Position numbers and translations under genes: made by a program. Shown here in pieces: positions 9,227 to 64,000 of a stretch of DNA of 64,000 nt. Position 1 is the stretch's first letter, and the number at the start of each line of letters is the position of its first letter. The notes beneath the pieces were generated by a model. The model had not been told where the DNA came from. It made no database searches and saw nothing but the letters and a program-made list of their open reading frames with translations. Source of the stretch: Cellulomonas sp. P24 (GTDB lineage Bacteria > Actinomycetota > Actinomycetes > Actinomycetales > Cellulomonadaceae); assembly GCF_024704385.1 (NCBI RefSeq), contig NZ_JAJDFX010000002.1, forward strand, positions 2,480,001 through 2,544,000, written 5' to 3'.

Positions 9227-9232
9227 CCTCGG

Positions 9233-9344: not shown

Positions 9345-9350
9345 GGACCG

Positions 9351-10998: not shown

Positions 10999-11101
10999 GC
11001 CCGGGCGGCGGTCCAGAACCCCTGATTGCCAGGGTTTTCACAGCAACACCAGGAAACGTCCAGCCACTGGCCCGACGGGGGTCGTCGACCCGTCGCACTC
11101 C

Positions 11102-11131: not shown

Positions 11132-11211
11132 GGGCTCCCTAGCGTGCAGATCGTTGGGTCGTCCCGCGCCATCCGGCCGGGCCCACATCGATGACGAAGG
11201 GACGTGACCAC

Positions 11212-12339: not shown

Positions 12340-12362
12340 TCGCACCACCTCGTGACACCGAT

Positions 12363-12396
12363 GGTGCCTGACCCGCCCCCGGGTGGGTCAGGCACC
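12363..12396 (+). terminator. pstS-pstC intercistronic hairpin
   Basis: Perfect 12-bp stem GGTGCCTGACCC / GGGTCAGGCACC with a 10-base loop. There is no T-tract. It probably acts as a partial terminator or 3' stabiliser that favours pstS mRNA over pstCA. Confidence 0.75.
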
Positions 12397-12427
12397 GTCG
12401 GTACGTCACCGTCCTGACAGGAGGAGC

Positions 12428-13447
12428 ATGGGAGCCCCGAGCAGCGCCGGCGGTTCGACCCTGGCCGAGCCTCGGCCCCGTGATGCGGAGAACGCGCGCG
12501 CCCCGCGCCGTCGGTCCCGCCCGGTCGAGCACCTGGCCGACCGGGTCTTCCGACGGCTGACGATCGGCTCGGCAGGCTTCCTGCTCACCCTCCTGGTCGC
12601 GATCGCGCTGTTCCTCCTCGAGCGTGCGCTTCCGGCGATCAACCAGGACAGCACCAACTTCTTCACCACGCGGACGTGGAACCCCGACGACCAGCCGCCG
12701 GTGTTCGGGATCGCCGCCCTCACCTACGGCACGCTCGTGACGTCGGCCCTCGCGGTCGCGATGGCGTTCCCCGTGGCCGTCGGCGTGGCCCTCGCCGTCA
12801 CGCACTACGTACCTCGCCGCGTCGCCCAGCTGATCGGCTACCTGGTCGACCTGCTCGCCGCGATCCCCAGCGTGGTCTTCGGCCTGTGGGGTCTGATCTT
12901 CCTGGTGCCGGCGATGATCCCGCTGAGCGCGTGGCTCGCCCGCTACTTCGGCTGGATCCCGATCTTCGCGTCGAAGGGCATCTTCGGGAAGTCGATCTTC
13001 ACCGCCTCGGTGGTCCTCGCGATCATGATCCTGCCGATCATCGCCGCGATCTCGCGCGAGGTCCTCGGCCAGGCGCCGCTCGCGCACCAGGAGGCGGCGT
13101 ACGCGCTCGGCGCCACGAAGTGGGAGATGATCCGCACCGCGGTGCTGCCGTACGGCCGGTCCGGGCTCATCAGCGCGACCGTGCTCGGCTTCGGCCGGGC
13201 GATGGGCGAGACCATCGCGGTCGCCCTCGTGCTCTCCGCCAACTACGAGATCAACATCCACCTGCTCGCACCGGGCGGCAACACCATCGCGGCGAACATC
13301 GCCAACACGTACGGCGAGGCCGCAGCGGTCGGACGCGGCGCGCTCATCGCCTCCGGGCTGGTGCTGTTCGTCATCACGCTGATCGTCAACTTCGTGGCAC
13401 GCGCGATCGTCGCTCGCAGCAAGGACTTCCGGGAGACCGGCTCATGA
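12428..13447 (+). CDS. pstC: phosphate ABC transporter permease PstC
   Basis: 339-residue inner-membrane permease with six predicted helices. The EAA-type cytoplasmic loop reads EAAYALGATKWEMIRTAVLP. ATG 12428 follows AGGAGG directly; the open frame extends upstream without a ribosome site. The TM2-TM3 region SVVFGLWGLIFLVPAM is typical of PstC. Its stop overlaps the pstA start by ATGA. Confidence 0.96.
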   Translation: MGAPSSAGGSTLAEPRPRDAENARAPRRRSRPVEHLADRVFRRLTIGSAGFLLTLLVAIALFLLERALPAINQDSTNFFTTRTWNPDDQPPVFGIAALTYGTLVTSALAVAMAFPVAVGVALAVTHYVPRRVAQLIGYLVDLLAAIPSVVFGLWGLIFLVPAMIPLSAWLARYFGWIPIFASKGIFGKSIFTASVVLAIMILPIIAAISREVLGQAPLAHQEAAYALGATKWEMIRTAVLPYGRSGLISATVLGFGRAMGETIAVALVLSANYEINIHLLAPGGNTIAANIANTYGEAAAVGRGALIASGLVLFVITLIVNFVARAIVARSKDFRETGS

Positions 13448-14514
13448 CCACCGCACCGACCGCCCCCGCCCCCGCGCCCGCCGACGTCCTCGTCTCCGTC
13501 TCCGGGGGGAACGCTCTGCCGTGCTGGACGGCCGCCGCCGTCGCCGGTGCCACCCTCGTCGTGAGCGGTGTGCTGTTCGCGCTGACCCCGCTGCAGGGTG
13601 TCGCGGACTTCGTGGTGTTCAGCACGCTCCTGTTCGTCGTCGCGTTCATCACGACGTCCGTGGTCGTCGAGGGCGGGCGGCGTGCCCGGGACCGCCTCGC
13701 GCTGACCCTGACGAGCGCAGCGCTCGTCATGGCGGTCGTGCCGCTCGTCGCGGTCCTCGGCTTCACCCTCAGCCGCGGGCTCGCACGGTTCGACGGGACG
13801 TTCTTCACGCACTCGATGTTCAGCGTCGCGGACAGCGACCCCGGCGGCGGCATCTACCACGCGATCGTCGGCACCATCGAGCAGGTCGGGATCGCGACGG
13901 TGATCTCGGTGCCGTTGGGCCTGATGGTGTCGATCTACCTCGTCGAGTACGCGCGCGGTCGGTTCGGCCGCGTCGTCAGCACGTTCGTCGACGTCATGAC
14001 GGGCCTGCCGTCGATCGTCGCCGGCCTGTTCGTCCTCGCGCTGTGGGTGCTGATCCTCCACCAGGGGTACAGCGGCTTCGCCGGGTCGCTGGCGCTCGTG
14101 ATCCTCATGATCCCGGTGGTCGTGCGCACCACCGAGGAGATGCTGCGCCTGGTCCCGGACTCGTTGCGCGAGGCCAGCTACGCGCTGGGGATCCCCCGCT
14201 GGCAGACCATCCGGTCGATCGTCCTCCCCACCGCGATGCCCGGCATCACGACGGGCATCATGCTGGCCGTCGCGCGCGTCTCGGGCGAGACCGCACCGCT
14301 GCTGCTGACCGTGTTCGGCAGCACCGCGATCAACGTCAACCCGTTCAGCGGTCCGCAGGAGGCGCTCCCGCTCTTCGTCTTCAGCGAGGCCGGTCTGCCG
14401 AACGACACGGCTCTGGCGCGTGCATGGGCGGGTGCCCTCACGCTCATCCTGCTCGTCGTCCTGCTGAACGTGGTCGCCCGGCTCCTGGTCCGACGCTCCG
14501 TCCTGCAGCGCTGA
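13444..14514 (+). CDS. pstA: phosphate ABC transporter permease PstA
   Basis: 356-residue permease partner of PstC. The EAA loop is EASYALGIPRWQTIRSIVLP. Family hallmarks GLPSIVAGLFVLALW and ARVSGETAPLLLT are present. The N-terminus is extended relative to E. coli PstA, with extra helices before the core, as in other actinobacteria. The expected next gene, pstB (ATPase), is absent; a protein of another family follows directly with a one-base overlap. Confidence 0.96.
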   Translation: MTTAPTAPAPAPADVLVSVSGGNALPCWTAAAVAGATLVVSGVLFALTPLQGVADFVVFSTLLFVVAFITTSVVVEGGRRARDRLALTLTSAALVMAVVPLVAVLGFTLSRGLARFDGTFFTHSMFSVADSDPGGGIYHAIVGTIEQVGIATVISVPLGLMVSIYLVEYARGRFGRVVSTFVDVMTGLPSIVAGLFVLALWVLILHQGYSGFAGSLALVILMIPVVVRTTEEMLRLVPDSLREASYALGIPRWQTIRSIVLPTAMPGITTGIMLAVARVSGETAPLLLTVFGSTAINVNPFSGPQEALPLFVFSEAGLPNDTALARAWAGALTLILLVVLLNVVARLLVRRSVLQR

Positions 14515-15521
14515 TGCCACGCGGGACGCGGCCGATGAGGGCCGGCTTCGGACCGCTGCTGCAGGTCCTCGACGACGCCGCCGTGCAGCACGTCGTGGTC
14601 GGGCCGGTCGCGAGGTATGCGCAGGCCGAGCCGGGTGCCCCGACGGTCCGCCCGCCCGAGTCGCTCGACATCGCGCCGTCCTTCGACGAGGTCAACCTGG
14701 CGCGGCTCGCCCGGGTGCTGGACGCCTTCGGCGCGACGTTGCGGATCACCGGGACGGCAGGCGGCATGCGGGTCCCGCTCAGCCCGGCGCTGTTCGTCGA
14801 CCTGCCCGTGCTGCCCCTGTCCACCCGGCTCGGCGACGTGACGGTGCTGCGCCACCCTCTCGACCGACCTGAGGCGTACGCCGAGCTCGTCGACTCGGCG
14901 ATCGCCGCATGGATCGACGGCGTCAGGGTCCTCGTGGTCGGCCCGGTGGTCGGGCCCGACGAGCTGTCCGAGCGGCGTCCTGCACCTGGCGGCGGCGCCG
15001 ACGGGGACGACGCGGGGTCGGCGGGCGGCGATCCTGCGGGGGCTGCGGGCGTCGTCGGGACGACAGGTCTCGCGGGGACGACAGATCTCGCAGGGACCAC
15101 GGGTCTCGCCGGGACCGCGGGTCTGGCGGGTCTGGCGGGTGCGGCTGGTCTCGCGGGGATCGCCGGCCGCACGGGCGACGTGCCTCGGGTGCCGGCGACG
15201 CCGGAGTCGGAGGAGGAGCTCGCCCAGGCGATCCTCGAGGCGGTCGACCGACTGACGCACCCGGTGTCGGTCCGCGAGCTCGTCCTGGCCATGAGCGGGT
15301 CGCGCCGGCTGCCGTACAAGCAGGTCAAGAACGCCGCGGAGATGCTGACCGCGCGCGGGGAGCTGCTGCGGGAGAAGGACGGCTCCGCCTACCGCTACCG
15401 GTCGCCGATCGATCCCGGTGACCGCATCGCCCGCCAGATCGCGGCGCTGCTGCGCACCGCACCGGACTGCGACGCCACGCTCCAGCGGGCACGCGGCTAC
15501 ATCGCCTCGTCGGCGAGCTGA
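14514..15521 (+). CDS. nucleotidyltransferase-like/winged-helix protein with hexapeptide repeat
   Basis: 335 residues, coupled to pstA by TGATG. I do not recognise a named family. The N-terminal part (VVVGPVARYAQAEPG, then PPESLDIAPSFDEVNLARLA) looks like a degenerate MNT-type nucleotidyltransferase core. The middle (about residues 165-217) is Gly/Ala-rich with a GTTGLA-like hexapeptide repeated. The C-terminus (ELAQAILEAVDRLTHPVSVR, then KQVKNAAEMLTARGELLREK) looks like a winged helix. ATG 14535 is an alternative start. It could be a regulator or a fusion of unknown role; position alone does not prove a phosphate function. Confidence 0.65.
   Translation: MPRGTRPMRAGFGPLLQVLDDAAVQHVVVGPVARYAQAEPGAPTVRPPESLDIAPSFDEVNLARLARVLDAFGATLRITGTAGGMRVPLSPALFVDLPVLPLSTRLGDVTVLRHPLDRPEAYAELVDSAIAAWIDGVRVLVVGPVVGPDELSERRPAPGGGADGDDAGSAGGDPAGAAGVVGTTGLAGTTDLAGTTGLAGTAGLAGLAGAAGLAGIAGRTGDVPRVPATPESEEELAQAILEAVDRLTHPVSVRELVLAMSGSRRLPYKQVKNAAEMLTARGELLREKDGSAYRYRSPIDPGDRIARQIAALLRTAPDCDATLQRARGYIASSAS
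15057..15163 (+). repeat. 18-bp in-frame tandem repeat
   Basis: Units of 18 bp beginning at 15057, 15075, 15093 and 15111 (type GGGACGACAGGTCTCGCG), then shortened 9-bp and diverged units. They encode GTTGLA-like hexapeptides inside the preceding gene's linker. Copy number is likely variable between strains. Confidence 0.88.
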
Positions 15522-15538
15522 GGCGCCGACGGAGCCGC

Positions 15539-16147
15539 TCAGGCGACGGTGATCCGCAGGTGGGCTGCCAGCGCCCCGGCGAGGTCGAGGAGCTGCTCCG
15601 GACTGATGGTGGCGCCGGCGAGCCCCGCGAGCCCGTCGAGCCGCGACAGGTCGGCTCTCCGGAGATCGACGTCGGTCAGCTCGGCGCGCGTCAGGTCGAG
15701 CCGGCCGATGCGGCAGTCGTCGATGACGAGGCGTGTCACGCGCGCACCGATGAGGTCGAGATCGCCGATCACGCATCCGTCGAGCCGGACGTCCGTGAGG
15801 TGCGCCTCGCGGAGGTTGAGGTAGTCGATCTTGCCGCCGTGCACCGTCACCCGGGTGAGCGCGCCACCGTAGGCCTGGACCGCCCCGAGTCGGCAGTCGA
15901 CGATCTCGACGTCGCGCCACGTCGCGTCGACGAGGTCGAGCGTGCCGGCGTGGACCTCGCGCAACGTCGTGTCGAGGAGCTGGGCGTGGTCGAGGTCGGT
16001 CGCGTCGAGGGTGCAGCCGTGCAGCACGCAGTCGATGAACCGCGCGTGATCGGCGTGCTGGCCCGACAGGTCGAGACCGTCGAACGCCAGGGCCTCGTAG
16101 TCGCCGTCGGGTTCGAGAGCACCGGTGAATGCGTCGAGATCGATCAC
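15539..16147 (-). CDS. pentapeptide-repeat protein
   Basis: About 202 residues. From residue 30 onward nearly every fifth residue is Leu/Val/Ile in an A(D/N)LXX-like spacing (for example LDLSGQHADHARFIDC, LREAHLTDVRLDGC, LDLTRAELTDVDLRRADLS), giving a right-handed quadrilateral beta-helix. Such proteins include DNA mimics that protect gyrase, but many have unknown roles. GTG 16147 is chosen because GGAGGG lies seven bases upstream; the open frame continues to 16189. It stands convergent to the gene ending at 15521. Confidence 0.85.
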   Translation of the reverse strand: MIDLDAFTGALEPDGDYEALAFDGLDLSGQHADHARFIDCVLHGCTLDATDLDHAQLLDTTLREVHAGTLDLVDATWRDVEIVDCRLGAVQAYGGALTRVTVHGGKIDYLNLREAHLTDVRLDGCVIGDLDLIGARVTRLVIDDCRIGRLDLTRAELTDVDLRRADLSRLDGLAGLAGATISPEQLLDLAGALAAHLRITVA

Positions 16148-51442: not shown

Positions 51443-52519
51443 ATGGCCACGATCGAGATGATCGGTGTACGCAAGACCTTCGGGACGACCGTCGCCCTCG
51501 CCGACCTGCACCTGCGGGTCGAGTCGGGGGAGATGGTCTGCCTGCTCGGCCCGTCGGGCTGCGGCAAGACGACCGCGCTGCGCCTGCTCGCCGGTTTCGA
51601 GCAGCCCGATGCGGGGCACATCCTGGTCGACGGCGAGGACGTGACGCGCGTCTCGCCGCGGCACCGTGGGTTCGGGATGGTGTTCCAGGACTACAGCCTG
51701 TTCCCCAACCTGACCGGGCGGCAGAACATCGCGTTCGGTCTCAAGGTGCGCCGCAAGGGTGCCGTGGAGACCGCTGAGACCGTCGATAGGCTGCTCGCCG
51801 TGACCCGGCTGGAGAAGCACGCGGACAAGTACCCGCACCAGATGTCCGGTGGTCAGCGCCAGCGCGTCGCTCTCGCGCGAGCCATCGCGACCGAGCCGCG
51901 GCTGCTGCTCCTCGACGAGCCGTTGTCCGCGCTGGACGCCCAGGTGCGTGAGCACCTGCGGGACGAGATCCGCCGCCTGCAGCAGGAGGTCGGCGTGACG
52001 ACGGTGTTCGTCACGCACGACCAGCACGAGGCGATGGCCGTCGCCGACCGGGTGGCCGTGATGCGCGAGGGGCTGCTCGAGCAGATCGACCCGCCGCGGG
52101 TGCTGTACAGCCGGCCCGCGTCGCAGTTCGTCGCCGGGTTCGTCGGCACCGTCAACCGGTTGTCCGCCGAGCGGACCGTCGACGGCGCCTGGTTCGTCCT
52201 GGGCGAGAAGGTCGAGGCCGTCGGTGACACGGCCGCGGACCGCGGCGCCGGGGAGGGCGCCGCCGTCGACACGGCACCGAAGCATGCCGTGGTGCGGCCC
52301 GAGCAGCTGCACGTCAACCGGGCGGAGTCCGGCGCGGGACCGGTCGCGCGCCTCGTCGCGCTGTCGTTCCTGGGGGCCTTCACGCGGGCGGTGATCGAGC
52401 ACCCGACCGAGGGGCTCGTGACGGCCGACGTGCTGGGTGAGGCCGCGGACGGCCTGACCGTGGGCGACGCGGTCGCGGTGAGCGTCCGTCCGGGAGCCGG
52501 TGCGGTGGTCCTGCAGTGA
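51443..52519 (+). CDS. ABC transporter ATPase with TOBE domain
   Basis: 358 residues. Walker A is LLGPSGCGKTTALRLLAG, Q-loop FGMVFQDYSLFPNLT, signature MSGGQRQRVALARAI, Walker B LLLLDEPLSALDA, and H-loop VFVTHDQHEAMAVAD. The C-terminal part (from about residue 240) is a TOBE domain with HAVVRPEQLHVN. It powers the two permeases above and belongs to the Pot/Fbp/Phn group. GAGGAGG upstream. Confidence 0.95.
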   Translation: MATIEMIGVRKTFGTTVALADLHLRVESGEMVCLLGPSGCGKTTALRLLAGFEQPDAGHILVDGEDVTRVSPRHRGFGMVFQDYSLFPNLTGRQNIAFGLKVRRKGAVETAETVDRLLAVTRLEKHADKYPHQMSGGQRQRVALARAIATEPRLLLLDEPLSALDAQVREHLRDEIRRLQQEVGVTTVFVTHDQHEAMAVADRVAVMREGLLEQIDPPRVLYSRPASQFVAGFVGTVNRLSAERTVDGAWFVLGEKVEAVGDTAADRGAGEGAAVDTAPKHAVVRPEQLHVNRAESGAGPVARLVALSFLGAFTRAVIEHPTEGLVTADVLGEAADGLTVGDAVAVSVRPGAGAVVLQ

Positions 52520-54186
52520 CCGCACGCACGACGCGGGACGGCGGGCAGGTCGGCGGGTCCGTCGGGACCCGCCCCGATGTTCTCGCGAGCGCCTCGACCG
52601 GCACCACGACGGCTGATGCCCTCGCGACGACGGCGGCGCGCACGCTCGTGCGGGGGGAGCCGGGACGGCTCGGCTGGGCGGAGCTCGTCGTCGGTCCCGG
52701 TGAGGCCCATCACGGGGACGCGCCGCACGCCGCGGGTGAGGCGCTCGCCTGCCTGGTGCACCTGTCCGACCTGCACCTGTGCGATGCCGAGTCGCCCGTG
52801 CGGCAGGAGTACCTGGACCGCCACGGTGACCCCGGCGCCCCGTACGCCGGGCGCCTCGGGACGATCGGCACCTACCGTCCGCAGGAGATCCTCACGGTCC
52901 AGGTCGCGGCCGCCGCGCTCGAGGCCGTGCAGCGGCTCGACCGGGCGCCGGTCACGGGTGCCCCGCTCGACGCGGTGATCGTCACGGGTGACATGACCGA
53001 CAACGCGCAGCGCAACGAGCTCGCCTGGTACACGTCGCTGATGGCCGGCGGTGTCCTGGACCCACGCAGCGGCGACCCGCGGCACAGCGGCTGGGTCGGT
53101 GCGGTCGACGCCGTGTGGTCGTCGTCGTACTGGCACCCGGACGGTGCGCCGGTCGGTGAGGAGCCCGATCGTCCGACGGCCCTCTACGGCTACCCCGCGG
53201 TGCCCGGTCTGGTCGAGGCGGCGCGGGCACGCGTCCTGTCTCCCGGTGCCGGTCTGCCCTGGTACAGCGTGCACGGCAACCACGACGCCCTGCTGCAGGG
53301 CACCGTCGCGCCCGACCCGGAGCTGCGCAGGCTCGCCACCGGGGACGAGCGGATCGTCGACCTCGCGGTGGGCCAGACGCCGCTCGTCGTCCTCGAGGGT
53401 GCCGCGCCGATCGGCCCTGCGAGGTACACGCACGACGCCTCGTCACCGCGCGAGACCGTCACCGCCGACCCGGCTCGGGCCCTCGTCCGCCCCGGGGACT
53501 TCGCGGCGGCCCTCGCCGAGACGGACCAGCACGGGGCGAGTCGCGTCGCGGGGCACGGGAACGCCTGGGTGTGCGACATCGGGCAGGTGCGGGTGATCGC
53601 GATCGACACCGTCAACCCGCACGGCGGGTGGCAGGGGTCGGTCGACGCGACGCAGCTCGCCTGGCTGTCCGACCAGCTCGACCGCGCGCAGGGCCGGTAC
53701 GTGGTGATCACGTCGCACCACCCCTCATGGACGCTGACGAACCCCTACGCGCCTGACGGCTCGCCGCGACGGCACCTGGCGGACGACGTCCTCGGGCTCC
53801 TGCTCCGGCACCGAGGCGTGGTCGCGTGGCTCGCCGGTCACGTCCACGCGCACACGCACGTGTGGCACCAGGCGCCGGACCGTGACGGCGGGTTGTGGGA
53901 GATCACGACGTCGTCGCTGGTCGACTGGCCGCAGCAGCTCCGCGTGCTCGAGCTCGTCCGCGAGCCGGGCGGGACCCTGGCCCTCGCGAGCACGGTGGTC
54001 GACCACCTCGGTGGTGCCGCCTGGGACCCGGAGGCCCTGGACGACCCGGTCAACCTGGCCGCGATCTCACGGTCCCTGGCCGTGAACGACTACCGCGCCC
54101 GGAACGTCCCGGCCCTGCTCGCGCGCACCGCCGGCACCCCGTCGGACCGCAACGCCGTCTGGCGCATGCCCGACCCCCACGCCTGA
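52516..54186 (+). CDS. TIGR03767-type calcineurin-like metallophosphoesterase
   Basis: 556 residues. All five metallophosphoesterase blocks are present: LVHLSDLHLCD, VIVTGDMTDNAQRNE, YSVHGNHDALLQG, VVITSHHPSWTL and WLAGHVHAHTHV. The overall form resembles the actinobacterial family TIGR03767 (PPA1498). There is no signal peptide, so it acts inside the cell. GTG 52516 overlaps the ATPase stop, placing it in one operon with the complete importer, which suggests that the imported substrate is a phosphomonoester or phosphodiester. Confidence 0.9.
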   Translation: MTARTTRDGGQVGGSVGTRPDVLASASTGTTTADALATTAARTLVRGEPGRLGWAELVVGPGEAHHGDAPHAAGEALACLVHLSDLHLCDAESPVRQEYLDRHGDPGAPYAGRLGTIGTYRPQEILTVQVAAAALEAVQRLDRAPVTGAPLDAVIVTGDMTDNAQRNELAWYTSLMAGGVLDPRSGDPRHSGWVGAVDAVWSSSYWHPDGAPVGEEPDRPTALYGYPAVPGLVEAARARVLSPGAGLPWYSVHGNHDALLQGTVAPDPELRRLATGDERIVDLAVGQTPLVVLEGAAPIGPARYTHDASSPRETVTADPARALVRPGDFAAALAETDQHGASRVAGHGNAWVCDIGQVRVIAIDTVNPHGGWQGSVDATQLAWLSDQLDRAQGRYVVITSHHPSWTLTNPYAPDGSPRRHLADDVLGLLLRHRGVVAWLAGHVHAHTHVWHQAPDRDGGLWEITTSSLVDWPQQLRVLELVREPGGTLALASTVVDHLGGAAWDPEALDDPVNLAAISRSLAVNDYRARNVPALLARTAGTPSDRNAVWRMPDPHA

Positions 54187-55738: not shown

Positions 55739-57142
55739 ATGGCAAACCGCGGAATGGGTCTGCTTCGAACCCGCAAGGCAGCGGTGGTCGCCGCGATCGC
55801 TGGTGCTTCGCTGACGCTGGCGGCATGTTCCGGCAGCGATGCAGGTGGAAGCAGTAGCGGCGAGGCCACCGCCGCCACGTCCGGTGAGGTCAGCTGGTGG
55901 GGCTGGACGCCCGACACGCCGGTGGCCGAGCGGTACATCGCGGAGTTCAACAAGGAGTACCCGGACATCAAGGTCACCTACAAGAACTTCGAGAACGTCG
56001 ACTTCCGCAACGCCCTCACCCCAGCGCTCGACTCCGGTCAGGGCCCGGACGTCTTCGACCTCTCGCCCGCAGGCGGCTCCCCCGACACCTGGGGTCCGTA
56101 CGCTCTCGACCTCGCCCCCGTGGCCGAAGCGACTCTTGGCACGGACTGGAAGTCGCAGTTCGGAGCCAACTACGTCAGCCAGCTGACCGACTCCGACGGC
56201 CGTGTGGTGTCGCTGCCGCTGGGTGGCATGTCCGCCGGCATGGTGTGGATCAACAAGGGCATCTTCGACGAGGCCGGCGCCGAGGTGCCGACCGACTACG
56301 CCTCGTGGCTCGCGGCCTGCGACAAGATCTCGGCCATCGGCAAGAAGTGCTTCACGATGGGCGCCGGCGGAGCGGACACCTTCCCGACCGAGATGTTCCA
56401 CTCGGTCGCCAACTCCGTCGACCCCGAGTTCTTCCTCAAGGCAGCCGTCGGCCAGGCCAAGTGGGACGACCCGCAGGGCATCGAGACCCTCAACATCTTC
56501 AAGAAGATGAAGGACGACGGGATCATCGCCTCCAACGTCCTCGACGCCGGGCAGTACCCGCTGGCCAACGAGGAGTTCATGAAGGGCGACGCGGCGATGG
56601 TGCAGATGGGGTTCTGGTACACCCAGTACGCGGGCAGCGAGTCGTGCGTCAGTGCGATGGAGAGTGCCGGCGTCACCAACCCCACGTGCTTCGTCCAGCT
56701 TCCTGTCGAGTTCCCGGACGTCGCGGGGCACGGCAACGGCTCCGCGTACTTCGGCGAGGCCGACTACGGCCTGGCGATCAATGCTGACTCCAAGAACATC
56801 GGAGCGTCGAAGACCTTCGTCACGTGGATGACGATGTCGAAGACCGGTCAGCAGAACGTCGCGAACGCGCTCGACCTGCTTCCGTCACTCGGCGGGGTCT
56901 CGCCGAGCTGGGACGCCATCAGCCTGGTTGACGAGGCGACGCAGAAGCCTGCGATCGAGAAGCTGATCGCGGCGAGCAACGAGACGACGCAGTCTCGCCA
57001 GTGGCAGACCACCCAGGACACGCTGGACGCGATCGTTCTCGCCATCCAGCAGGTCCTCGACCCGACGATCACCATGTCGATCGACGACATCGCGGCTCAG
57101 CTCCAGAAGTCATCGGTGGCGAGCACCGTCGGCGTCAAGTAG
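55739..57142 (+). CDS. sugar-binding lipoprotein of the beta-glucoside locus
   Basis: 467 residues. Signal peptide AAVVAAIAGASLTLAAC with lipobox, then a CUT1-type solute-binding fold (VSWWGWTPDTPVAERYIAEF, GPDVFDLSPAGGSPDTWGPY). Followed by two permeases, Gfo/Idh/MocA, VOC, aldo/keto reductase and GH1 genes on the same strand, so the ligand is probably a beta-glucoside or derived sugar. ATG 55739 has AGAAGGA upstream. GC content is a little lower than in neighbouring genes. Confidence 0.93.
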   Translation: MANRGMGLLRTRKAAVVAAIAGASLTLAACSGSDAGGSSSGEATAATSGEVSWWGWTPDTPVAERYIAEFNKEYPDIKVTYKNFENVDFRNALTPALDSGQGPDVFDLSPAGGSPDTWGPYALDLAPVAEATLGTDWKSQFGANYVSQLTDSDGRVVSLPLGGMSAGMVWINKGIFDEAGAEVPTDYASWLAACDKISAIGKKCFTMGAGGADTFPTEMFHSVANSVDPEFFLKAAVGQAKWDDPQGIETLNIFKKMKDDGIIASNVLDAGQYPLANEEFMKGDAAMVQMGFWYTQYAGSESCVSAMESAGVTNPTCFVQLPVEFPDVAGHGNGSAYFGEADYGLAINADSKNIGASKTFVTWMTMSKTGQQNVANALDLLPSLGGVSPSWDAISLVDEATQKPAIEKLIAASNETTQSRQWQTTQDTLDAIVLAIQQVLDPTITMSIDDIAAQLQKSSVASTVGVK

Positions 57143-57169
57143 GTCATTCGACAGGACTGGAGTTCATAC

Positions 57170-58162
57170 GTGATGGCGAACCTTGCGAGGTCGGCAGGTT
57201 CACTGAATTCCAAGCCGGGTGGAAAGCGAGGTGGGTGGCTCGGTCAAGGGGCCACCCACCTCGTCCCGGGTGGTCTGAAGTGGATCCTCCCTGGCTTCAT
57301 CTTGTCCGTGGGACTGATCTACTACAGCATCATCTACTCGGGGTATCTCTCCTTCTTCGACTGGCCAGGTGGCCGGGCGAAGATGACGTCGGTGGGTGTC
57401 GCGAACTACCAGGAGGCGCTCTCCGACCCAGTGTTCTGGATCGCCATCCGGAACGTCCTCATCTACTTCGTGGTCATCTTCACCGTCCAGGTGGTCGGCG
57501 GGCTCTCCTTCGCGGCGGCGATGCACTCGAAGGTCTACCTCGCGAACATCTACAAGATCATCATCGTGGTCCCGGTCGTGGTGGCCCCGGCGACGATGGC
57601 GCCGGCGCACATCGAGGTGTGGCAGACCAACGGCACCTTCAATGCGATCTTGCGGGCGATCGGCCTCGACTCCTGGACCCAGGGCTGGATCGGGCAGTCC
57701 ACCACGGCGTTGTTCGTCGTCATCATGGCGGGGTGCTGGGGCGCGATCGGATTCGGTTTCATCCTGTACTTCGCGGCCATGGGGCAGATCGAGCCGGAGA
57801 TGATCGAGGCGGCGCGGATCGACGGCGCGGGGAACATCCGCATGCTGAGGTCGATCGTGCTTCCGAACGTGCGCTCGGTGACGGTGTCGCTCGGCATCCT
57901 CAACTTCATGACGGCGCTCAAGCTCTTCGACACGCCGTGGCTGCTCACCCAGGGTGGCCCCGCTCACTCGTCCGAGTTCCTCGGCACGATGATCTATTCA
58001 GAGACGGCGGGTTCGTCGCGGAACCTCGGGTACGCGGCGGCGCTGTCCATCCTGCTGCTGGTGATGGCGATCGGTATCTCGATCGCGATTCAGCTGCGTT
58101 CCCGCGAGAAGAGCCCGACGGGCGCCCGCAGGTCGAAGAAGAAGGTGGCCGGACATGTTTGA
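57170..58162 (+). CDS. sugar ABC transporter permease (MalF type)
   Basis: 330 residues, six helices starting at KWILPGFILSVGLIYYSIIY. The EAA loop is MIEAARIDGAGNIRMLRSIV and the C-terminal motif is LTQGGPAHSSEFLGTM. GTG 57170 is immediately followed by ATG, either of which could serve. It overlaps the next permease by eight bases. No ATPase is encoded nearby. Confidence 0.93.
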   Translation: MMANLARSAGSLNSKPGGKRGGWLGQGATHLVPGGLKWILPGFILSVGLIYYSIIYSGYLSFFDWPGGRAKMTSVGVANYQEALSDPVFWIAIRNVLIYFVVIFTVQVVGGLSFAAAMHSKVYLANIYKIIIVVPVVVAPATMAPAHIEVWQTNGTFNAILRAIGLDSWTQGWIGQSTTALFVVIMAGCWGAIGFGFILYFAAMGQIEPEMIEAARIDGAGNIRMLRSIVLPNVRSVTVSLGILNFMTALKLFDTPWLLTQGGPAHSSEFLGTMIYSETAGSSRNLGYAAALSILLLVMAIGISIAIQLRSREKSPTGARRSKKKVAGHV

Positions 58163-58943
58163 GACGCGAACCCGATGGGCGCAGGTTCTGCTCCAGGTGC
58201 TCGTCACCATCGCGGTGATCCCGCTCCTCATCCCGCTTGTGACGATGGTGGCCCGATCGCTCGAGGGGCGCGGGTGGGGCAACTACCTGGCCGTGCTCGA
58301 GGTGCCGGGATTCCTCACGTTCTTCCGCAACTCGGCCATCGTCTCGGGTGGTTCCATCGCCATCATCTACCTGGCGACGATGGCCGGCGCCTTCGGTTTC
58401 TCCAAGCTGCGGATCCGGCACAAGGAGGTGTTCTTCTGGATGATGATGGCGGCGCTGACGTTGCCGGAGGTCGTCCTGATCGCCCCGTTGTACGCCACCG
58501 CGGTCAAGCTCGGGATGATGGGCACCTTCTGGTCGGTGATCCTGCCGATCGCCGCGTTGCAGGTGCCGTTCACGGTCCTCCTGACCCGCGGGTACATGGA
58601 CGGCATCCCTGACACGTTGTTCGAGGCCGCCCGGCTCGACGGGGCGAACACGTGGCGGTTCTTCTGGTCGATCCTCGTGCCGCTCGCGCGGCCGATGGCG
58701 ACGGCCATCATCATCCTGGTGCTGATCAACTCGTGGAACTCGTACCTGCTCCCGAAGGTGTTCCTCATCAACGACAACATGGGCGTCGTCACCCTGCTGC
58801 CGGAGTTCTTCCGACGCCAGTACAACGACGACACCCCGAAGGTCCTCGCCGCGGCCGTGATCACGGCGATCCCGACGATCGTCGCGTACATCTCGCTCCA
58901 GAAGCAGTTCGAGCGTGGCATGGCGGCGGGCGCGATCAAGTAG
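58155..58943 (+). CDS. sugar ABC transporter permease (MalG type)
   Basis: 262 residues: LLQVLVTIAVIPLLIPLVTM as first helix and EAA loop LFEAARLDGANTWRFFWSIL. Ends in FERGMAAGAIK, the typical C-terminus of CUT1 MalG-type permeases. Starts inside the previous gene, so translation is coupled. Confidence 0.93.
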   Translation: MFETRTRWAQVLLQVLVTIAVIPLLIPLVTMVARSLEGRGWGNYLAVLEVPGFLTFFRNSAIVSGGSIAIIYLATMAGAFGFSKLRIRHKEVFFWMMMAALTLPEVVLIAPLYATAVKLGMMGTFWSVILPIAALQVPFTVLLTRGYMDGIPDTLFEAARLDGANTWRFFWSILVPLARPMATAIIILVLINSWNSYLLPKVFLINDNMGVVTLLPEFFRRQYNDDTPKVLAAAVITAIPTIVAYISLQKQFERGMAAGAIK

Positions 58944-58989
58944 TGCGGGTTCCGGTGAGTGTGCGCGTGACGACGACGGGAGCGAGATC

Positions 58990-60120
58990 GTGAGTGTGCT
59001 GGGTGGTGCGGCGCCCGAGGGCGCGGGCCGGGAGGCGGCTCGGGAGCCGATCCGCTACGCCGTGGTGGGCAACGGCTGGCGGGCGGGCATCTTCGGACGG
59101 CTCGCCGAGCTCTTCCCCGAGCGGTTGCGGGTCACCGGGGTGGTGACCAGGACCGCCGAGGGAGGCGAGCGGGCCGAGCAGCAGTGGCACACGCCGTCGT
59201 TCCGCACGCTTGCGGACGCGGTGCGGGCCGAGCGGCCGGACTTCGTCGTCGCGGCGGTGCCGTGGTCGGTCGCGCCGCAGATCACTCGCGAGGCCGTGGC
59301 GCTCGACCTGCCGGTGCTCAGCGAGACTCCCCCGGCCCCGGACGTGCCAGGTCTGGTCGAGCTGTGGTCCCAGGTGGGCGCGTCCGGCCTCGTGCAGGTC
59401 GCCGAGCAGTACCCGCTCTACCCCGGGCACGCTGCGCGGCTGCGGCTGATCGATGCAGGGGTGCTCGGTGCGGTGAGCAACGTCCAGGTCTCCTCGACGC
59501 ACCAGTACCACGCGATGGCGCTCATGCGAGCGATGCTCGGCGTCGGTTTCGATGACGCCGCGGTGACGGCGTTCCGGACGGAGTTCGGGCTGGCGAGCCC
59601 GATCGGTCGAGATGGCTGGACGGGCGATCTGACGCCGCAGCCGTCGTGGAACCTGCTCGCGCACTACGACTTCGGCGACGGCCGCAGCGGGCTGTACGAC
59701 TTCACCGACAACCAGTGGCACAACGAGCTGCGGTCCAACCGGATCCTGGTGCGTGGCAGCCACGGCGAGCTGGTCACCGACCACGTGGTGCACGTGACGG
59801 ACACGCAGACGGTCCTGGAGTCCGACCTCGTGCGCCGACAGACGGGGCGGGACATGAACTTCGAGGGATTCGACCTGGACCACATCGCCTTCGAGGGGAA
59901 GGTCGTCTACCGCAACGCGTGGCAGGGCGGTCGGCTGGCCGACGACGAGATCGCCGTCGCCTCGCTGCTGGCCGGGATGGGTGCGTGGGTGCGCGACGGA
60001 GGACCGGCGCCCTACCCGCTCGCCGACGCGTGCCAGGACCATCTGCTCGCGCTGGCGATCGACGAGTCGCTCGCCACGGGCCGGGCGGTGCGGACGACGC
60101 GCCGGCCCTGGGCGTCCTGA
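58990..60120 (+). CDS. Gfo/Idh/MocA-family protein lacking the EKP lysine
   Basis: 376 residues from GTG 58990. The N-terminal Rossmann part is IRYAVVGNGWRAGIFGRLAE, followed by FVVAAVPWSVAPQITREAVA. At the place of the usual catalytic EKP motif the sequence is VLSETPPAPD, without the lysine. The C-terminal domain has LAHYDFGDGRSGLYDFTDNQ. Either it works by a different acid/base or it is a non-classical member; a sugar oxidoreductase or a deglycosylation partner are possibilities. Part of the glycoside operon. Confidence 0.87.
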   Translation: MSVLGGAAPEGAGREAAREPIRYAVVGNGWRAGIFGRLAELFPERLRVTGVVTRTAEGGERAEQQWHTPSFRTLADAVRAERPDFVVAAVPWSVAPQITREAVALDLPVLSETPPAPDVPGLVELWSQVGASGLVQVAEQYPLYPGHAARLRLIDAGVLGAVSNVQVSSTHQYHAMALMRAMLGVGFDDAAVTAFRTEFGLASPIGRDGWTGDLTPQPSWNLLAHYDFGDGRSGLYDFTDNQWHNELRSNRILVRGSHGELVTDHVVHVTDTQTVLESDLVRRQTGRDMNFEGFDLDHIAFEGKVVYRNAWQGGRLADDEIAVASLLAGMGAWVRDGGPAPYPLADACQDHLLALAIDESLATGRAVRTTRRPWAS

Positions 60121-60205
60121 CCGACCTCGCGGCGTGGTCGGCACCCGCCGAGCCCGTCCCATCCGTGCGGTCCGGCGATCGCGCACCGACAGAGAGCAGA
60201 AGGCC

Positions 60206-60976
60206 ATGGCCGTCACGAACCTCGTGCTGAACGTCGCGGACGTCGCGCGCTCGGTGGACTTCTACACCGGGCTGCTCGGCGCGGTGGTCACGGGAGAACC
60301 CACGTCGGAGAGGGCTGTCCTCGACCTGGTCACCGCGACGCTGGAGCTGCGTCTGCTCGCCGACGGCGCCGCGTGCCCGTGGCAGGAGGACGACAGGTCT
60401 CTCGGATTTCGGCACCTCGGGTTCAAGGTCGAGGCCGTCGACCCGCTCGTCGCACAGTTGCGGGCGGCCGGCGTCCGGCTCCGTCTCGAGCCCGTCGATG
60501 CCGTGGGGGAGGTCCGGATCGCGTTCTTCTACGACCCGGACGGCACGGTGCTGGAGGTCGTCGAGGGCCACCTCAGGTATCACGACGTCGTCGACGCCGC
60601 GGCCGTGGCCGCCGAGCGCGCGCTGCCGGTTCCCACCCGTCCTCGCTTCGATCACGTGGGGGTGACGAGCCGTGACCTTGCGACGACCGTCGCGACCTAC
60701 CGGCCGCTGGGGTTCCGGCACAGCGGCACGCTGCACTTCCGGGACGACCCGAGGGGTTTCCGGATCGACTACCTCAAGGGTGGAGACACGGTGATCGAGG
60801 TCTTCACCTTCGACGTCGAGGTCTGGCCGGCACCGCCGCGCACGGACACCTACGGCTTCGCGGCGGCGCAGCTGGACGGCGCCCCGGGCGTCGTGGCCGG
60901 GGCGGAGGTCGGGATCGTCGACGGGCGACGTGTGCTCGTCGCCTCCGACGACTTCCCCGTGATGGTGGGCCGGTGA
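60206..60976 (+). CDS. two-domain VOC (glyoxalase-fold) protein
   Basis: 256 residues. Domain 1 is NLVLNVADVARSVDFYTGLL with FFYDPDGTVLEVVEGH. Domain 2 starts at RFDHVGVTSRDLATTVATYR with FRIDYLKGGDTVIEVFTFDV. Paired VOC units build one metal site. Families include isomerases, dioxygenases and lyases, and the reaction here is unknown. ATG 60206 follows AGAAGG. Its stop overlaps the next start by GTGA. Confidence 0.87.
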   Translation: MAVTNLVLNVADVARSVDFYTGLLGAVVTGEPTSERAVLDLVTATLELRLLADGAACPWQEDDRSLGFRHLGFKVEAVDPLVAQLRAAGVRLRLEPVDAVGEVRIAFFYDPDGTVLEVVEGHLRYHDVVDAAAVAAERALPVPTRPRFDHVGVTSRDLATTVATYRPLGFRHSGTLHFRDDPRGFRIDYLKGGDTVIEVFTFDVEVWPAPPRTDTYGFAAAQLDGAPGVVAGAEVGIVDGRRVLVASDDFPVMVGR

Positions 60977-61938
60977 TCGAGGTGCGGGTCGGTGGGCCCG
61001 GCTGGGTGCGGACACTCGGCGGTACCGGCCTCGAGGTGACGGCGCTGGGCGTCGGTGGCGGACCGCTCGGCAGCATGCCCGAGGCGTTCGGGTACTCCGT
61101 CTCGCAGGATCAGGCGGTCGACCTCGTCGAGGCGGTGCTCGCGAGCCCGATCCGCGTGCTGGACACGTCCAACGGCTACTCCGACGGGGAGAGCGAGCGA
61201 CGCATCGGGGCCGGGATCGCCCGGGCCGGTGGCCTGCCGCCGGACGTGCTCGTCATCACCAAGGTCGATGCGCGAGACGGCGACTACTCGGGCCGCAGGG
61301 TGCGGGAGTCGGTGCGGGAGAGCCGTGAGCGACTCGGCCTCGACACCCTTCCTTTGGTGCACCTGCACGATCCGGAGTTCCACGACTGGGACGACCTCAC
61401 GTCGCGCGGCGGAGCGGTGGAGACCCTCGTGCGGATGCGCGAGGAGGGGACGATCGGGCACATCGGTGTCGCGGGAGGTGACACCCGGGTGCTGTCGCGG
61501 TACCTCGACCTCGGTGTGTTCGACGCGGTGCTGGTGCACAGCCGGCTGACGGTCGTGGACCGCAGCGCCGAGCAGCTCGTCGCGCGTGCCGAGGCCGAGG
61601 GGCTGGGGGTCGTCAATGCGGCCGTGTACGGCGGCGGCATCCTGGCCGACCCGTCGGGCGGCTCCTCCCGGTACGGCTACCAGCAGGCCTCCGTGGCGAC
61701 GCTCGAGGCGGTGCACCGGATGGCGGAGCTGTGCACGCGTTGGGGTACCGACCTGCCCACGGCCGCCCTGCAGTACTCGCTGCGTGACCAACGGGTGCAT
61801 CTCACGGTGGTCGGCATCAGCAAGCGGCGCCGGTTGGACGGTCTGATCGAGGCGGTGGGGGTCGACCTCTCCCCGGAGTTCTGGGACGAGCTCGAGACGC
61901 TCGTCCCGGCCCCGGAGAACTGGCTCGACGCGGGGTAG
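60973..61938 (+). CDS. aldo/keto reductase (D-threo-aldose/L-fucose dehydrogenase type)
   Basis: 321 residues. AKR barrel with LEVTALGVGGGPLGSMPEAF, catalytic Asp/Tyr in VLDTSNGYSDGESERRIGAG, Lys in VLVITKVDARDG, and His in LVHLHDPEF. The form is close to bacterial aldose 1-dehydrogenases that oxidise a free sugar to its lactone, which would fit after glycoside cleavage by the GH1 enzyme downstream. GTG 60973 overlaps the VOC stop. Confidence 0.9.
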   Translation: MIEVRVGGPGWVRTLGGTGLEVTALGVGGGPLGSMPEAFGYSVSQDQAVDLVEAVLASPIRVLDTSNGYSDGESERRIGAGIARAGGLPPDVLVITKVDARDGDYSGRRVRESVRESRERLGLDTLPLVHLHDPEFHDWDDLTSRGGAVETLVRMREEGTIGHIGVAGGDTRVLSRYLDLGVFDAVLVHSRLTVVDRSAEQLVARAEAEGLGVVNAAVYGGGILADPSGGSSRYGYQQASVATLEAVHRMAELCTRWGTDLPTAALQYSLRDQRVHLTVVGISKRRRLDGLIEAVGVDLSPEFWDELETLVPAPENWLDAG

Positions 61939-62023
61939 GCGACCGGCTCGCTGCCACCCCCGCCGCACCGAGGCGACCAGCCCGGCCGCGGTCCTCATCC
62001 CGACGCCAAGGAGGCGCATCTGC

Positions 62024-63412
62024 ATGACAGCCCATCGTGGGGACTTCCCCGCCGACTTCGCCTGGGGCACGGCCACGGCCTCCTACCAGATCGAGGGCGC
62101 CCCCGACGTCGACGGGAAGGGCCCGAGCATCTGGGACACGTTCACCCGGGTGCCCGGCGCCATCGCGGACGGCAGGACGGGGGACGTCGCCGACGACCAC
62201 TACCGCCGCTTCCGTGAGGACGTGGCGATCATGGCCGACCTCGGGGTCAACTCCTACCGGTTCTCGATCGCCTGGTCGCGCATCCAGGCCGACGGCACCG
62301 GCCCGGTCAACCCCGCAGGGATCGCCTTCTACCGAACCTTGGCCGAGGAGCTCCTCGGGCGCGGGATCACGCCCTACGCCACGCTGTACCACTGGGACCT
62401 CCCGCAGGCTCTCGAGGACCGTGGCGGGTGGCTCGAGCGCGACACCGCCGAGCGGTTCGGCGAGTACGCGGGACTCGTGGCGTCCGAGCTCGGTGACGTC
62501 GTCGGTGACTGGATCACGCTGAACGAGCCGTGGTGCTCCTCGTTCCTCTCCTACGCCGGCGGCATCCATGCGCCGGGTCGGACCGTGGGAGCGCACGCGG
62601 CGCGTGCCGCGCATCACCTGCTCCTCGGGCACGGGCGTGCAGTCCCGGCGATCCGTGCCGCGAGCCCGGAGGCGAAGGTCGGCATCACGCTCAACCTGTA
62701 CTCGATGCGGGCGGCCTCGGACAGCGCGGCGGACCGCGATGCCGAGCGTCGCATCGACGGTCTCGTCAACCGGTTCTTCCTGCAGCCCGTGCTGACCGGT
62801 GGCTACCCGCAGGACGTGCTCGCCGACCTGGGCGAGACGGAGTGGTTCGCCGAGCATGCGACGCGCGACGCGGCCGACGTCGCGACGCCGATCGACTTCC
62901 TCGGCATCAACTACTACAGCAGGCACGTCGTCGCCGACCCGCCGATCGGCGCCGAGGTCGTCGGGGAGCCGGCCGGACTCACGTATCCCGGCAGCGAGAG
63001 CGTGCTGTTCGTCGACACGGGGGCACCCCGGACCGCGATGGGCTGGCCGATCCATCCCGAGGGCATGGTCGACGTGCTCGAGATGGCTCACGCCTACCGT
63101 CCGGACCTGCCTCTGTACATCACGGAGAACGGCTCGGCGTATCCCGACACGGTCGTCGACGGCGAGGTCGAGGACGAGGCGCGGCGCCGCTACCTGGAGC
63201 AGCACGTCATGGCGTGCTCGGCGGCACTGCAGCAGGGGCTGCCGCTGAAGGGCTACTTCGCCTGGACGCTCATGGACAACTTCGAATGGGCGTGGGGCTA
63301 CTCGCGGCGGTTCGGCCTCGTGCACGTCGACTACTCGACCCAGAAGCGCACGCTCAAGCGGAGCGGGACGTGGTTCCGCAGCTTCCTGACCGGCTCCGGT
63401 GACGTCCGATGA
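62024..63412 (+). CDS. bglB: GH1 beta-glucosidase
   Basis: 462 residues. The acid/base glutamate is in DWITLNEPWCSSFLSYAGG and the nucleophile in LYITENGSAYPD. The N-terminal signature is FAWGTATASYQIEGAPD; the aglycone wall is FAWTLMDNFEWAWGYSRRFG. No signal peptide, so it is intracellular and hydrolyses imported beta-glucosides such as cellobiose. AAGGAGG upstream. The symbol is by family analogy. Confidence 0.95.
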   Translation: MTAHRGDFPADFAWGTATASYQIEGAPDVDGKGPSIWDTFTRVPGAIADGRTGDVADDHYRRFREDVAIMADLGVNSYRFSIAWSRIQADGTGPVNPAGIAFYRTLAEELLGRGITPYATLYHWDLPQALEDRGGWLERDTAERFGEYAGLVASELGDVVGDWITLNEPWCSSFLSYAGGIHAPGRTVGAHAARAAHHLLLGHGRAVPAIRAASPEAKVGITLNLYSMRAASDSAADRDAERRIDGLVNRFFLQPVLTGGYPQDVLADLGETEWFAEHATRDAADVATPIDFLGINYYSRHVVADPPIGAEVVGEPAGLTYPGSESVLFVDTGAPRTAMGWPIHPEGMVDVLEMAHAYRPDLPLYITENGSAYPDTVVDGEVEDEARRRYLEQHVMACSAALQQGLPLKGYFAWTLMDNFEWAWGYSRRFGLVHVDYSTQKRTLKRSGTWFRSFLTGSGDVR

Positions 63413-63480
63413 GCGACGACGAGTCGGGTGACGGAGAGGCGCGATCCGCGGCAGAGGCTCCGAGATACGCCGACAGAAGT

Positions 63481-63510
63481 TTGACTTTTGCATGGTCGCC
63501 GCGCAAAGAT
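63481..63510 (+). promoter_or_regulatory. promoter before the last gene, with shared motif
   Basis: TTGACT at 63481-63486, 18-base spacer, AAAGAT at 63505-63510. The -35 overlaps TGACTTTTGCAT (63482-63493), which matches the motif before the binding-protein gene at 55628. Confidence 0.5.
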
Positions 63511-63516
63511 GACGTC

Positions 63517-64000
63517 ATGCCTGACTCGCGGTCGACGGCGCCGACCTTCGGCGGCGTTCGCGCGCGCATGACGTCGTCGATGCGCTCAGGCATCATCGGG
63601 CTGGGATTCATCGGCGAGGTCCACGCCCGCGCCGTGCGCGCCGCCGGGGGCACCCTCGTGGCCGTGGCCGACGCGACCGCCGACGGCATCGAGGACTCGG
63701 CACAGCGGCTCGGCGCAGAGCGCGGGGCCGCCTCGGCCGAGGAGCTCGTGACCTCGCCCGACGTCGACGTCGTCCACATCTGCACGCCGAACCACCTGCA
63801 CGCGCCGTTGGCGCGACTGGCGCTCGAAGCCGGGAAGCACGTCATCTGCGAGAAGCCGTTGGCGACCACGGCCGCCGATGCGGCTGAGCTCGTCGAGCTG
63901 GCGCGCGTGGCCGGTGTGGTCGCGGCCGTGCCCTTCATCTACCGGTACTACCCGACGGTGCGCGAGGCCCGGGCGCGGGTGGCGTCGGGTGCAGGCGGCC
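63517..64000 (+). CDS. Gfo/Idh/MocA oxidoreductase, 3' end cut by window edge
   Basis: Open from ATG 63517 to the window end (161 codons visible). Rossmann start GIIGLGFIGEVHARAVRAAG, then VHICTPNHLHAPLARLALEA and the intact catalytic motif KHVICEKPLATTAADAAELV, unlike the lysine-less relative at 58990. The true start may be ATG 63568 or 63580, since the first 17-21 residues are low in family similarity. It is an NAD(P)-dependent sugar or inositol dehydrogenase, probably of the same glycoside pathway. Confidence 0.88.
   Translation, partial: MPDSRSTAPTFGGVRARMTSSMRSGIIGLGFIGEVHARAVRAAGGTLVAVADATADGIEDSAQRLGAERGAASAEELVTSPDVDVVHICTPNHLHAPLARLALEAGKHVICEKPLATTAADAAELVELARVAGVVAAVPFIYRYYPTVREARARVASGAGG

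What the first reader, a model, noticed from the sequence alone, without database searches (positions are those of the whole stretch)
55739..64000. Oxidative glycoside-use locus of unfamiliar composition
Order: binding protein, two permeases, Gfo/Idh/MocA, two-domain VOC, aldo/keto reductase, GH1, Gfo/Idh/MocA, with no kinase or isomerase in view. This suggests oxidation of the sugar, with the VOC protein doing an isomerisation or ring opening, rather than phosphorylation. I do not recognise a described pathway with this set.
Basis: inference. Interest (0 to 1): 0.6.

Follow-up and report, generated by a model that had tools for sequence, protein, structure and literature searches.

The report
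Actinobacterial 3-keto-glycoside utilisation gene cluster
The genes look like a bacterial system for importing glucosides and breaking them down both by ordinary hydrolysis and by a recently described oxidise-eliminate-rehydrate route, together with one extra metal enzyme whose job is not known.

Summary
The listed gene order is real, but the window edge cuts the locus. The same-strand run goes on about 5.2 kb: the rest of the second Gfo/Idh/MocA gene (GfoB), two TIM-barrel "isomerases", a beta-propeller, an AKR and an SDR, then a ROK regulator on the other strand. TIM1 resembles the O-glycoside beta-eliminase AtOGE and keeps seven of the eight metal or catalytic residues named for it (the eighth is outside the alignment). 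TIM2 resembles 8ro4, a 2-hydroxy-3-keto-glucal hydratase. This is the published oxidation, beta-elimination, hydration, reduction route, so "no isomerase" and "no described pathway" are edge effects; it is not the inositol pathway. Unexplained is the upstream module: two-domain VOC, AKR1, GH1, and the odd GfoA. In 7 of 7 loci with a close VOC (window included) AKR1 follows directly; in 6 of 7 GH1 is present. The VOC keeps one His/Glu/His/Glu set in 20 of 20 sequences, which I read as one composite glyoxalase-like metal site of a proton-transfer isomerase or epimerase acting on a keto sugar (inferred). Ten text searches of one open library found no description of this module. The two halves occur apart in other genomes, so that they form one system is inferred.

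The parts
55739..57142 (+). SBP: sugar-type ABC binding protein (lipoprotein-like)
   Evidence: PF01547 E 6e-23
57170..58162 (+). perm1: ABC permease
   Evidence: PF00528 49.9 bits, cut-off 26.4
58155..58943 (+). perm2: ABC permease
   Evidence: PF00528 70.7 bits, cut-off 26.4
58990..60120 (+). GfoA: divergent Gfo/Idh/MocA protein in which the EKP motif reads ETP; start codon uncertain (open frame from 58915)
   Evidence: PF01408 34 bits; ETPPA in 6 of 6 aligned sequences
60206..60976 (+). VOC2: two-domain VOC protein with one predicted composite metal site (H70, E117, H150, E198)
   Evidence: PF00903 E 2e-17; 20 of 20 sequences; model pLDDT 93.5; Z 20.7 to maize glyoxalase I
60973..61938 (+). 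AKR1: aldo/keto reductase; D64, Y69, K97, H132 invariant
   Evidence: PF00248 126.7 bits; 9 aligned sequences; that these four are the AKR tetrad is recalled
62024..63412 (+). GH1 beta-glucosidase
   Evidence: TIGR03356 582.9 bits, cut-off 478.5
63409..64000 (+). GfoB: canonical Gfo/Idh/MocA oxidoreductase, first part; open frame from 63409, homology from about 63574; ends at window-equivalent 64671. The run continues outside the window (L005 position + 53999): TIM1 64773-65555, TIM2 65552-66604, TolB-like propeller 66610-67491, AKR2 67514-68347, SDR 68446-69207, then on the minus strand a single-domain VOC 69274-69732 and a ROK regulator 69900-71084
   Evidence: PF01408 E 6.5e-29 for the whole gene

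Best explanation
It is a glucoside-utilisation gene cluster. A binding protein and two permeases import a beta-glucoside or oligosaccharide. GH1 hydrolyses simple beta-glucosidic bonds. In parallel GfoB oxidises the sugar at C3 with NAD, TIM1 eliminates the aglycone to leave 2-hydroxy-3-keto-glucal, TIM2 adds water to give 3-keto-glucose, and a reductase (GfoB in reverse, or AKR1, AKR2 or the SDR) gives glucose, which a glucokinase encoded elsewhere phosphorylates. VOC2 is a metal-dependent proton-transfer isomerase or epimerase acting on a keto-sugar intermediate or by-product, working with AKR1. Shown here: gene content and order, homology, conserved residues of TIM1, VOC2 and AKR1, and conserved gene neighbourhoods of each half. 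Inferred: every reaction in this organism, one transcript, the substrate, which protein is the reductase, the roles of VOC2 and GfoA, and that both halves serve one substrate.
For: TIM2 matches 8ro4 '2-hydroxy-3-keto-glucal hydratase' E 3.9e-38. TIM1 matches AtOGE 8bvk E 1.4e-13 with seven of eight named residues conserved and the eighth outside the alignment. GfoB is related to levoglucosan dehydrogenase and DgpA. TIM1, a GfoB-like gene and TIM2 lie together in 6 of 20 fetched TIM1 loci, five of them with a divergent ROK gene 56-59% identical to the one here. AKR1 follows VOC2 directly in 7 of 7 close VOC2 loci and GH1 is present in 6 of 7, window counted. VOC2 His/Glu/His/Glu in 20 of 20. 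AKR1- or VOC2-type genes lie near TIM1 in L007 and L093.
Against: The halves are separable: among 20 other VOC2 loci none has TIM2 or GfoB and one has a TIM1 relative; among 20 fetched TIM1 loci none has VOC2, GfoA or GH1 and one has AKR1. The second canonical Gfo gene seen between TIM1 and the GfoB-like gene in L092, and by eye in L098, is missing here, so the reductase is unassigned. The transporters beside the close VOC2 genes are only about 30% identical to the window's permeases. No activity, transcript or substrate was tested.
Confidence: 0.6

Rival explanations
1. Two neighbouring but independent systems: a GH1 operon whose GfoA, VOC2 and AKR1 process the released sugar or its aglycone, and next to it a separate 3-keto-glycoside locus with its own ROK regulator.
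For: Each half occurs without the other in other genomes; the ROK gene goes with the TIM1-TIM2 half in five loci.
Against: Same strand and tight spacing here; TIM1 beside VOC2-AKR1 in L007 and beside AKR1 in L093.
Confidence: 0.3
2. VOC2 and AKR1 act on the aglycone, not the sugar: GH1 releases an aromatic alcohol from an aryl glucoside, AKR1 oxidises or reduces it, and VOC2 cleaves or rearranges it as a dioxygenase-like enzyme.
For: Two-domain VOC architecture is that of extradiol dioxygenases, weakly matched (HpaD 23.7 bits, catechol 2,3-dioxygenase 23.1 bits); 2,6-dichlorohydroquinone dioxygenase is tied with maize glyoxalase I in the structure comparison (Z 19.8 against 20.7); a tautomerase gene lies in two of these operons.
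Against: The conserved ligands are His/Glu from one domain and His/Glu from the other; the C-domain positions where a dioxygenase triad would sit vary (the triad is recalled). The operons are of sugar-import type.
Confidence: 0.2
3. A standard inositol pathway.
For: GfoB matches IolG weakly (111.7 bits), TIM1 and TIM2 match IolE weakly (41.3 and 38.9 bits).
Against: All far below the curated cut-offs of 355 and 290 bits; GH1 would be out of place.
Confidence: 0.03

Closest known systems
Agrobacterium tumefaciens GlycDH - AtOGE - AtHYD - Gfo operon (PMC10628242: abstract, passages and section 8 seen)
   Same: Gfo oxidoreductase with two TIM-barrel proteins related by sequence to AtOGE (8bvk) and to the 2-hydroxy-3-keto-glucal hydratase 8ro4
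   Different: Here an ABC importer, GH1, VOC2, AKRs, an SDR and a TolB-like propeller are added; one canonical Gfo gene instead of two oxidoreductases
Levoglucosan pathway LgdA-LgdB1-LgdB2-LgdC (PMC7676230 and PMC10066097: passages seen)
   Same: Order of chemistry: oxidation, elimination, hydration, reduction; ABC transporter nearby
   Different: GfoB scores 167.2 bits against a cut-off of 650 for levoglucosan dehydrogenase, so the substrate need not be levoglucosan
TIM1 - Gfo - GfoB-like - TIM2 loci with divergent ROK gene in the same order (L091, L092, L095, L098, L099)
   Same: TIM2 76-79%, ROK 56-59%, TIM1 45-48% identical
   Different: No VOC2, GfoA, GH1 or AKR1 in the stretches read
Two-domain glyoxalase I of maize (6bnz, 5d7z)
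   Same: Fold over the whole length (Z 20.7, rmsd 2.9, 222 aligned); two-domain plant glyoxalase I works as a monomer (PMC6240745, passage)
   Different: 20% identity; VOC2 is below the glyoxalase I cut-off (41.3 against 120 bits) and 11 of the 21 VOC2 copies seen lie in sugar-import operons

Membership tests
3-keto-glycoside beta-elimination pathway | Gfo/Idh/MocA-type glycoside 3-dehydrogenase gene | tested here: inconclusive
   GfoB is in the superfamily with an EKP motif and is related to DgpA and levoglucosan dehydrogenase; C3 specificity cannot be read from sequence
3-keto-glycoside beta-elimination pathway | Eliminase with the AtOGE Mn2+ site and catalytic His134 | tested here: met
   E39, H66, H132, H134, E161, D163, H189 face E55, H81, H144, H146, E174, D176, H202 of TIM1 (numbered from L005:10720); E233 lies outside the alignment
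3-keto-glycoside beta-elimination pathway | 2-hydroxy-3-keto-glucal hydratase | tested here: met
   TIM2 to 8ro4, E 3.9e-38 over 313 residues; by homology only
3-keto-glycoside beta-elimination pathway | 3-keto-glucose reductase | tested here: inconclusive
   Candidates GfoB, AKR1, AKR2, SDR; no second canonical Gfo gene in the run
3-keto-glycoside beta-elimination pathway | Enzyme activities on 3-keto-glycosides | not testable with these tools
   needs purified proteins
Levoglucosan (Lgd) pathway | Levoglucosan dehydrogenase over the curated cut-off | tested here: not met
   NF052479 167.2 against 650 bits
Inositol catabolism | IolG and IolE over curated cut-offs | tested here: not met
   111.7 against 355; 41.3 and 38.9 against 290 bits
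GH1 beta-glucosidase | TIGR03356 over cut-off | tested here: met
   582.9 against 478.5 bits
Glyoxalase I (lactoylglutathione lyase) | TIGR00068 over cut-off | tested here: not met
   VOC2 41.3 against 120 bits
Two-domain extradiol dioxygenase | His/His/Glu triad within the C-terminal domain (recalled) | tested here: not met
   C-domain first His and Glu198 are invariant, but the second-half positions vary in 20 sequences; ligand distances could not be measured
Canonical Gfo/Idh/MocA dehydrogenase (for GfoA) | Lysine of the EKP motif (role recalled) | tested here: not met
   Threonine in 6 of 6 aligned sequences and in the paralogue in L054

The most novel reading that the evidence does not exclude
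VOC2 is a new enzyme type of carbohydrate catabolism: a metal-dependent epimerase, or 2-/3-keto isomerase, of keto sugars that works with AKR1 (and with a tautomerase or GfoA in some genomes), so that glycosides of other stereochemistry, or ketosugars that drift from 3-keto to 2-keto, are brought back to glucose. The VOC-AKR-GH1 module would then be a new branch of the 3-keto-glycoside route.
Probability: 0.2. Interest if true: 0.65.

Novelty: new variant of a known kind. Interest (0 to 1): 0.4.

Why it matters
Non-hydrolytic cleavage of glycosides by oxidation and elimination has been described only in recent years, and its gene sets vary. This locus adds a clear actinobacterial-type example beside a classical beta-glucosidase, and singles out one conserved unknown, the two-domain VOC protein with its AKR partner, which can be tested directly with 3-keto sugars. 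It also suggests that the solved structure 2zds, deposited as a putative DNA-binding protein, belongs with the 2-hydroxy-3-keto-glucal hydratases (function inferred).

Tried and rejected
Standard inositol pathway: rejected by curated cut-offs. Levoglucosan pathway proper: rejected for GfoB by cut-off. Phospho-beta-glucosidase route: GH1 is over the beta-glucosidase cut-off and below the 6-phospho cut-offs. Ring-cleaving dioxygenase: disfavoured by ligand pattern but kept as a rival, since a dioxygenase structure is tied with glyoxalase I. Shared operator: no 16-mer with at most one mismatch shared between the eight intergenic stretches compared; one perfect palindrome lies beyond the ROK gene. 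GfoA structure: model too poor to use (pLDDT 60.3). GfoA at phylum scale: 1 of 396 genomes, the own one, but only four candidates per genome were scored, so the count is weak. More VOC2 loci from the genus of G014 (11 genomes) and the family of G241 (5 genomes): nothing new. Six clostridial loci (L009-L014) match only residues 1-120 or less of VOC2 and were not analysed. L033, a partial VOC2 copy on a 4.3 kb contig, was left out of the alignment and of the 20-of-20 count but is in the counts. Of the TIM1 matches, 20 were fetched, from the upper part of the list, so 6 of 20 is not a rate for the order. VOC2 tree: most deep forks near the window's sequence are weakly supported. Papers: ten searches ran; four of them returned no paper because the term sets were narrow; none of the listings showed a VOC-AKR-GH1 sugar module. 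They cover one open library only.
Full report
What is there. The window is G000:C2:2480001-2544000 of a 4.42 Mb genome held in two contigs. The genes overlap or are at most about 90 bases apart if GfoB begins at the ATG overlapping the GH1 stop; its homology begins about 165 bases later. GH1 is a curated-level beta-glucosidase (582.9 bits, cut-off 478.5).

What lies past the edge. The stretch L005 (offset to the window checked) shows that the same-strand run continues for about 5.2 kb: the rest of GfoB, TIM1 and TIM2 (both Xylose isomerase-like TIM barrels, PF01261), a TolB-like beta-propeller, AKR2 (best NCBIfam match DkgA, below its cut-off) and an SDR; then on the other strand a single-domain VOC and a ROK-family regulator. 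So the statement that no isomerase is in view holds for the window and not for the locus. A glucokinase-family protein over its cut-off lies about 1.2 Mb away (285.6 bits, cut-off 260.35).

Why the downstream half is the 3-keto-glycoside route. TIM2 matches 8ro4, deposited as 2-hydroxy-3-keto-glucal hydratase, at E 3.9e-38, and is closer still to 2zds (E 3.8e-162). TIM1 matches 8bvk at E 1.4e-13, and also 8tcd/8tcr and 8tcs. 8bvk is named in the text of PMC10628242, whose AtOGE reaches residue 259, the length of 8bvk. Section 8 of that paper names eight metal or catalytic residues; in the printed alignment seven of them, Glu39, His66, His132, His134, Glu161, Asp163 and His189, face Glu55, His81, His144, His146, Glu174, Asp176 and His202 of TIM1 (numbered from L005:10720, my reading); Glu233 lies beyond the alignment. 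GfoB keeps the EKP motif and is related to levoglucosan dehydrogenase and DgpA, though far below the levoglucosan dehydrogenase cut-off (167.2 against 650 bits). The published pathway is oxidation at C3, beta-elimination, hydration, reduction (PMC7676230 passages; PMC10628242 passages and section 8).

Independent support. A TIM1 relative (E up to 1e-40) is present in 56 of 198 genomes of the order. I fetched 20 of those loci, from the upper part of the list. In 6 of 20 a TIM2 (76-79% identical) and a GfoB-like gene (30-36%) lie within a few kb of TIM1; in five of these six a ROK gene 56-59% identical to the one beside the window locus is divergent from TIM1, and the sixth (L094) is cut near by a contig end. 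A second Gfo gene lies between TIM1 and the GfoB-like gene in L092 (Pfam) and, by eye, in L098. The window's run has no such second canonical Gfo gene, so its reductase is unassigned. The other 14 of 20 TIM1 loci show no TIM2 in the stretch.

The upstream module. VOC2 relatives are rare: 9 of 198 genomes in the order at E up to 1e-20, 9 of 394 in the class at E up to 1e-25, where mostly six candidates per genome were scored, and 2 of 59 near relatives, the own genome counted each time. I examined all 18 other copies listed and two named ones, 20 in all. In the six with 48-55% identity (L007, L008, L025, L026, L043, L044) ABC permeases precede VOC2 and AKR1 follows it directly; GH1 is present in five of the six. 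With the window this is 7 of 7 for AKR1 and 6 of 7 for GH1. GfoA is within the stretch in the window, L043 and L044 (3 of 7). Over all 20 other loci AKR1 is found in 8, GH1 in 8, GfoA in 5, TIM1 in 1, TIM2 and GfoB in none. L027 has binding protein, permeases and GfoA close to the window's (44-65% identical), then VOC2, a protein with PF07005/PF17042, a PdxA-type protein and GH1. L032 has the same transporter type with VOC2 and a cellulase-family gene. L045 and L049 have VOC2 with GH1 and permeases but no AKR1. L026 and L043 have a Tautomerase_2 protein between AKR1 and GH1.

Results that weaken the module. Ten of the 21 VOC2 copies are not in such a sugar operon in the stretch read: L028, L031 and L033 (the last two near contig ends), the five from one genus (L046-L048, L050, L051), and L029 and L030, where GfoA, AKR1 and a permease lie some 7-9 kb away. 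The permeases beside the six close VOC2 genes are only about 30% identical to the window's, while the window's transporter and GfoA go with L027, L032 and the genome's own paralogous operon. The window's arrangement therefore looks like a mixture of two operon types.

What VOC2 probably is. In 20 aligned sequences His70, Glu117, His150 and Glu198 are invariant, while the mirror positions 5, 47 and 220 vary. In VOC pseudo-dimers two ligands of one domain pair with two of the other (recalled), so the N-domain pair 70/117 and the C-domain pair 150/198 can form one complete site while the other site has decayed. The AlphaFold model is confident (pLDDT 93.5). Its best solved match over the full length is two-domain maize glyoxalase I (Z 20.7, rmsd 2.9, 222 aligned, 20% identity); 2,6-dichlorohydroquinone dioxygenase follows at Z 19.8 and counts as tied. 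I could not measure ligand distances, because no model coordinates were available to scripts. His/Glu/His/Glu sites of this kind serve proton-transfer isomerases (recalled), which is why I favour an isomerase or epimerase over a dioxygenase. A 3-keto to 2-keto drift of a keto-glucoside without enzyme is mentioned in PMC10628242 (passage), which would give such an isomerase a purpose; that link is my inference.

GfoA. Five homologues share 50-57% identity with the window protein, and all six sequences have ETPPA where canonical members have EKP. The genome's paralogous operon (L054) carries a GfoA 52% identical with binding protein and permeases 43-56% identical, two SDR genes, and frames that I read by eye as GH3 and GH10. 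GfoA is thus tied to glycoside operons more widely; whether it is still a dehydrogenase is open.

How the halves relate. They are separable. They meet in the window's genome, partly in L007 (a TIM1 relative, 35% identical, near VOC2-AKR1) and partly in L093 (AKR1, 44%, beside TIM1). I give about 0.6 to one joint glucoside system and 0.3 to two neighbouring systems; the aglycone reading of VOC2 (0.2) overlaps with both.

Verdict. Observation confirmed; interpretation partly supported; the downstream half is known chemistry, and the VOC-AKR-GH1 module is a recurrent arrangement for which I found no description in the searches named.

Noticed in passing
L054 (G000:C2:1173000-1192900), about 4300-15600: A paralogous operon in the same genome: binding protein, two permeases, SDR, GfoA with the same ETPPA motif, and by eye a GH3, another SDR, a GH10 and a LacI-type regulator; it looks like a second glycoside (perhaps xylan) system.
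   Followed up: partly
PDB 2zds, against TIM2 (L005:11553-12605): The structure deposited as 'putative DNA-binding protein' is a very close relative of TIM2 (E 3.8e-162) and so is probably a sugar hydratase, not a DNA-binding protein.
   Followed up: partly
L005:17575-17590 (window-equivalent 71574-71589): A perfect 16-base palindrome GTATCCGATCGGATAC between the ROK regulator gene and the next gene; no copy with at most one mismatch in the seven other intergenic stretches compared.
   Followed up: partly
L026:6580-6963 and L043:7982-8365: A Tautomerase_2 gene sits between AKR1 and GH1 in two VOC2 operons and is absent from the window's locus.
   Followed up: partly
L029 and L030: GfoA and AKR1 lie beside an IlvD/Edd-type dehydratase (L029 by Pfam) and an SDR, which suggests an oxidative sugar-acid route there.
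   Followed up: partly
L005:12611-13492; L085, L094, L098: A TolB-like beta-propeller gene recurs beside TIM1 or TIM2 in 3 of 20 TIM1 loci; its role in the pathway is unexplained.
   Followed up: no
window 51443-54186: Upstream of the locus an ABC ATPase gene overlaps the start of a gene that looks, by eye, like a metallophosphoesterase.
   Followed up: no
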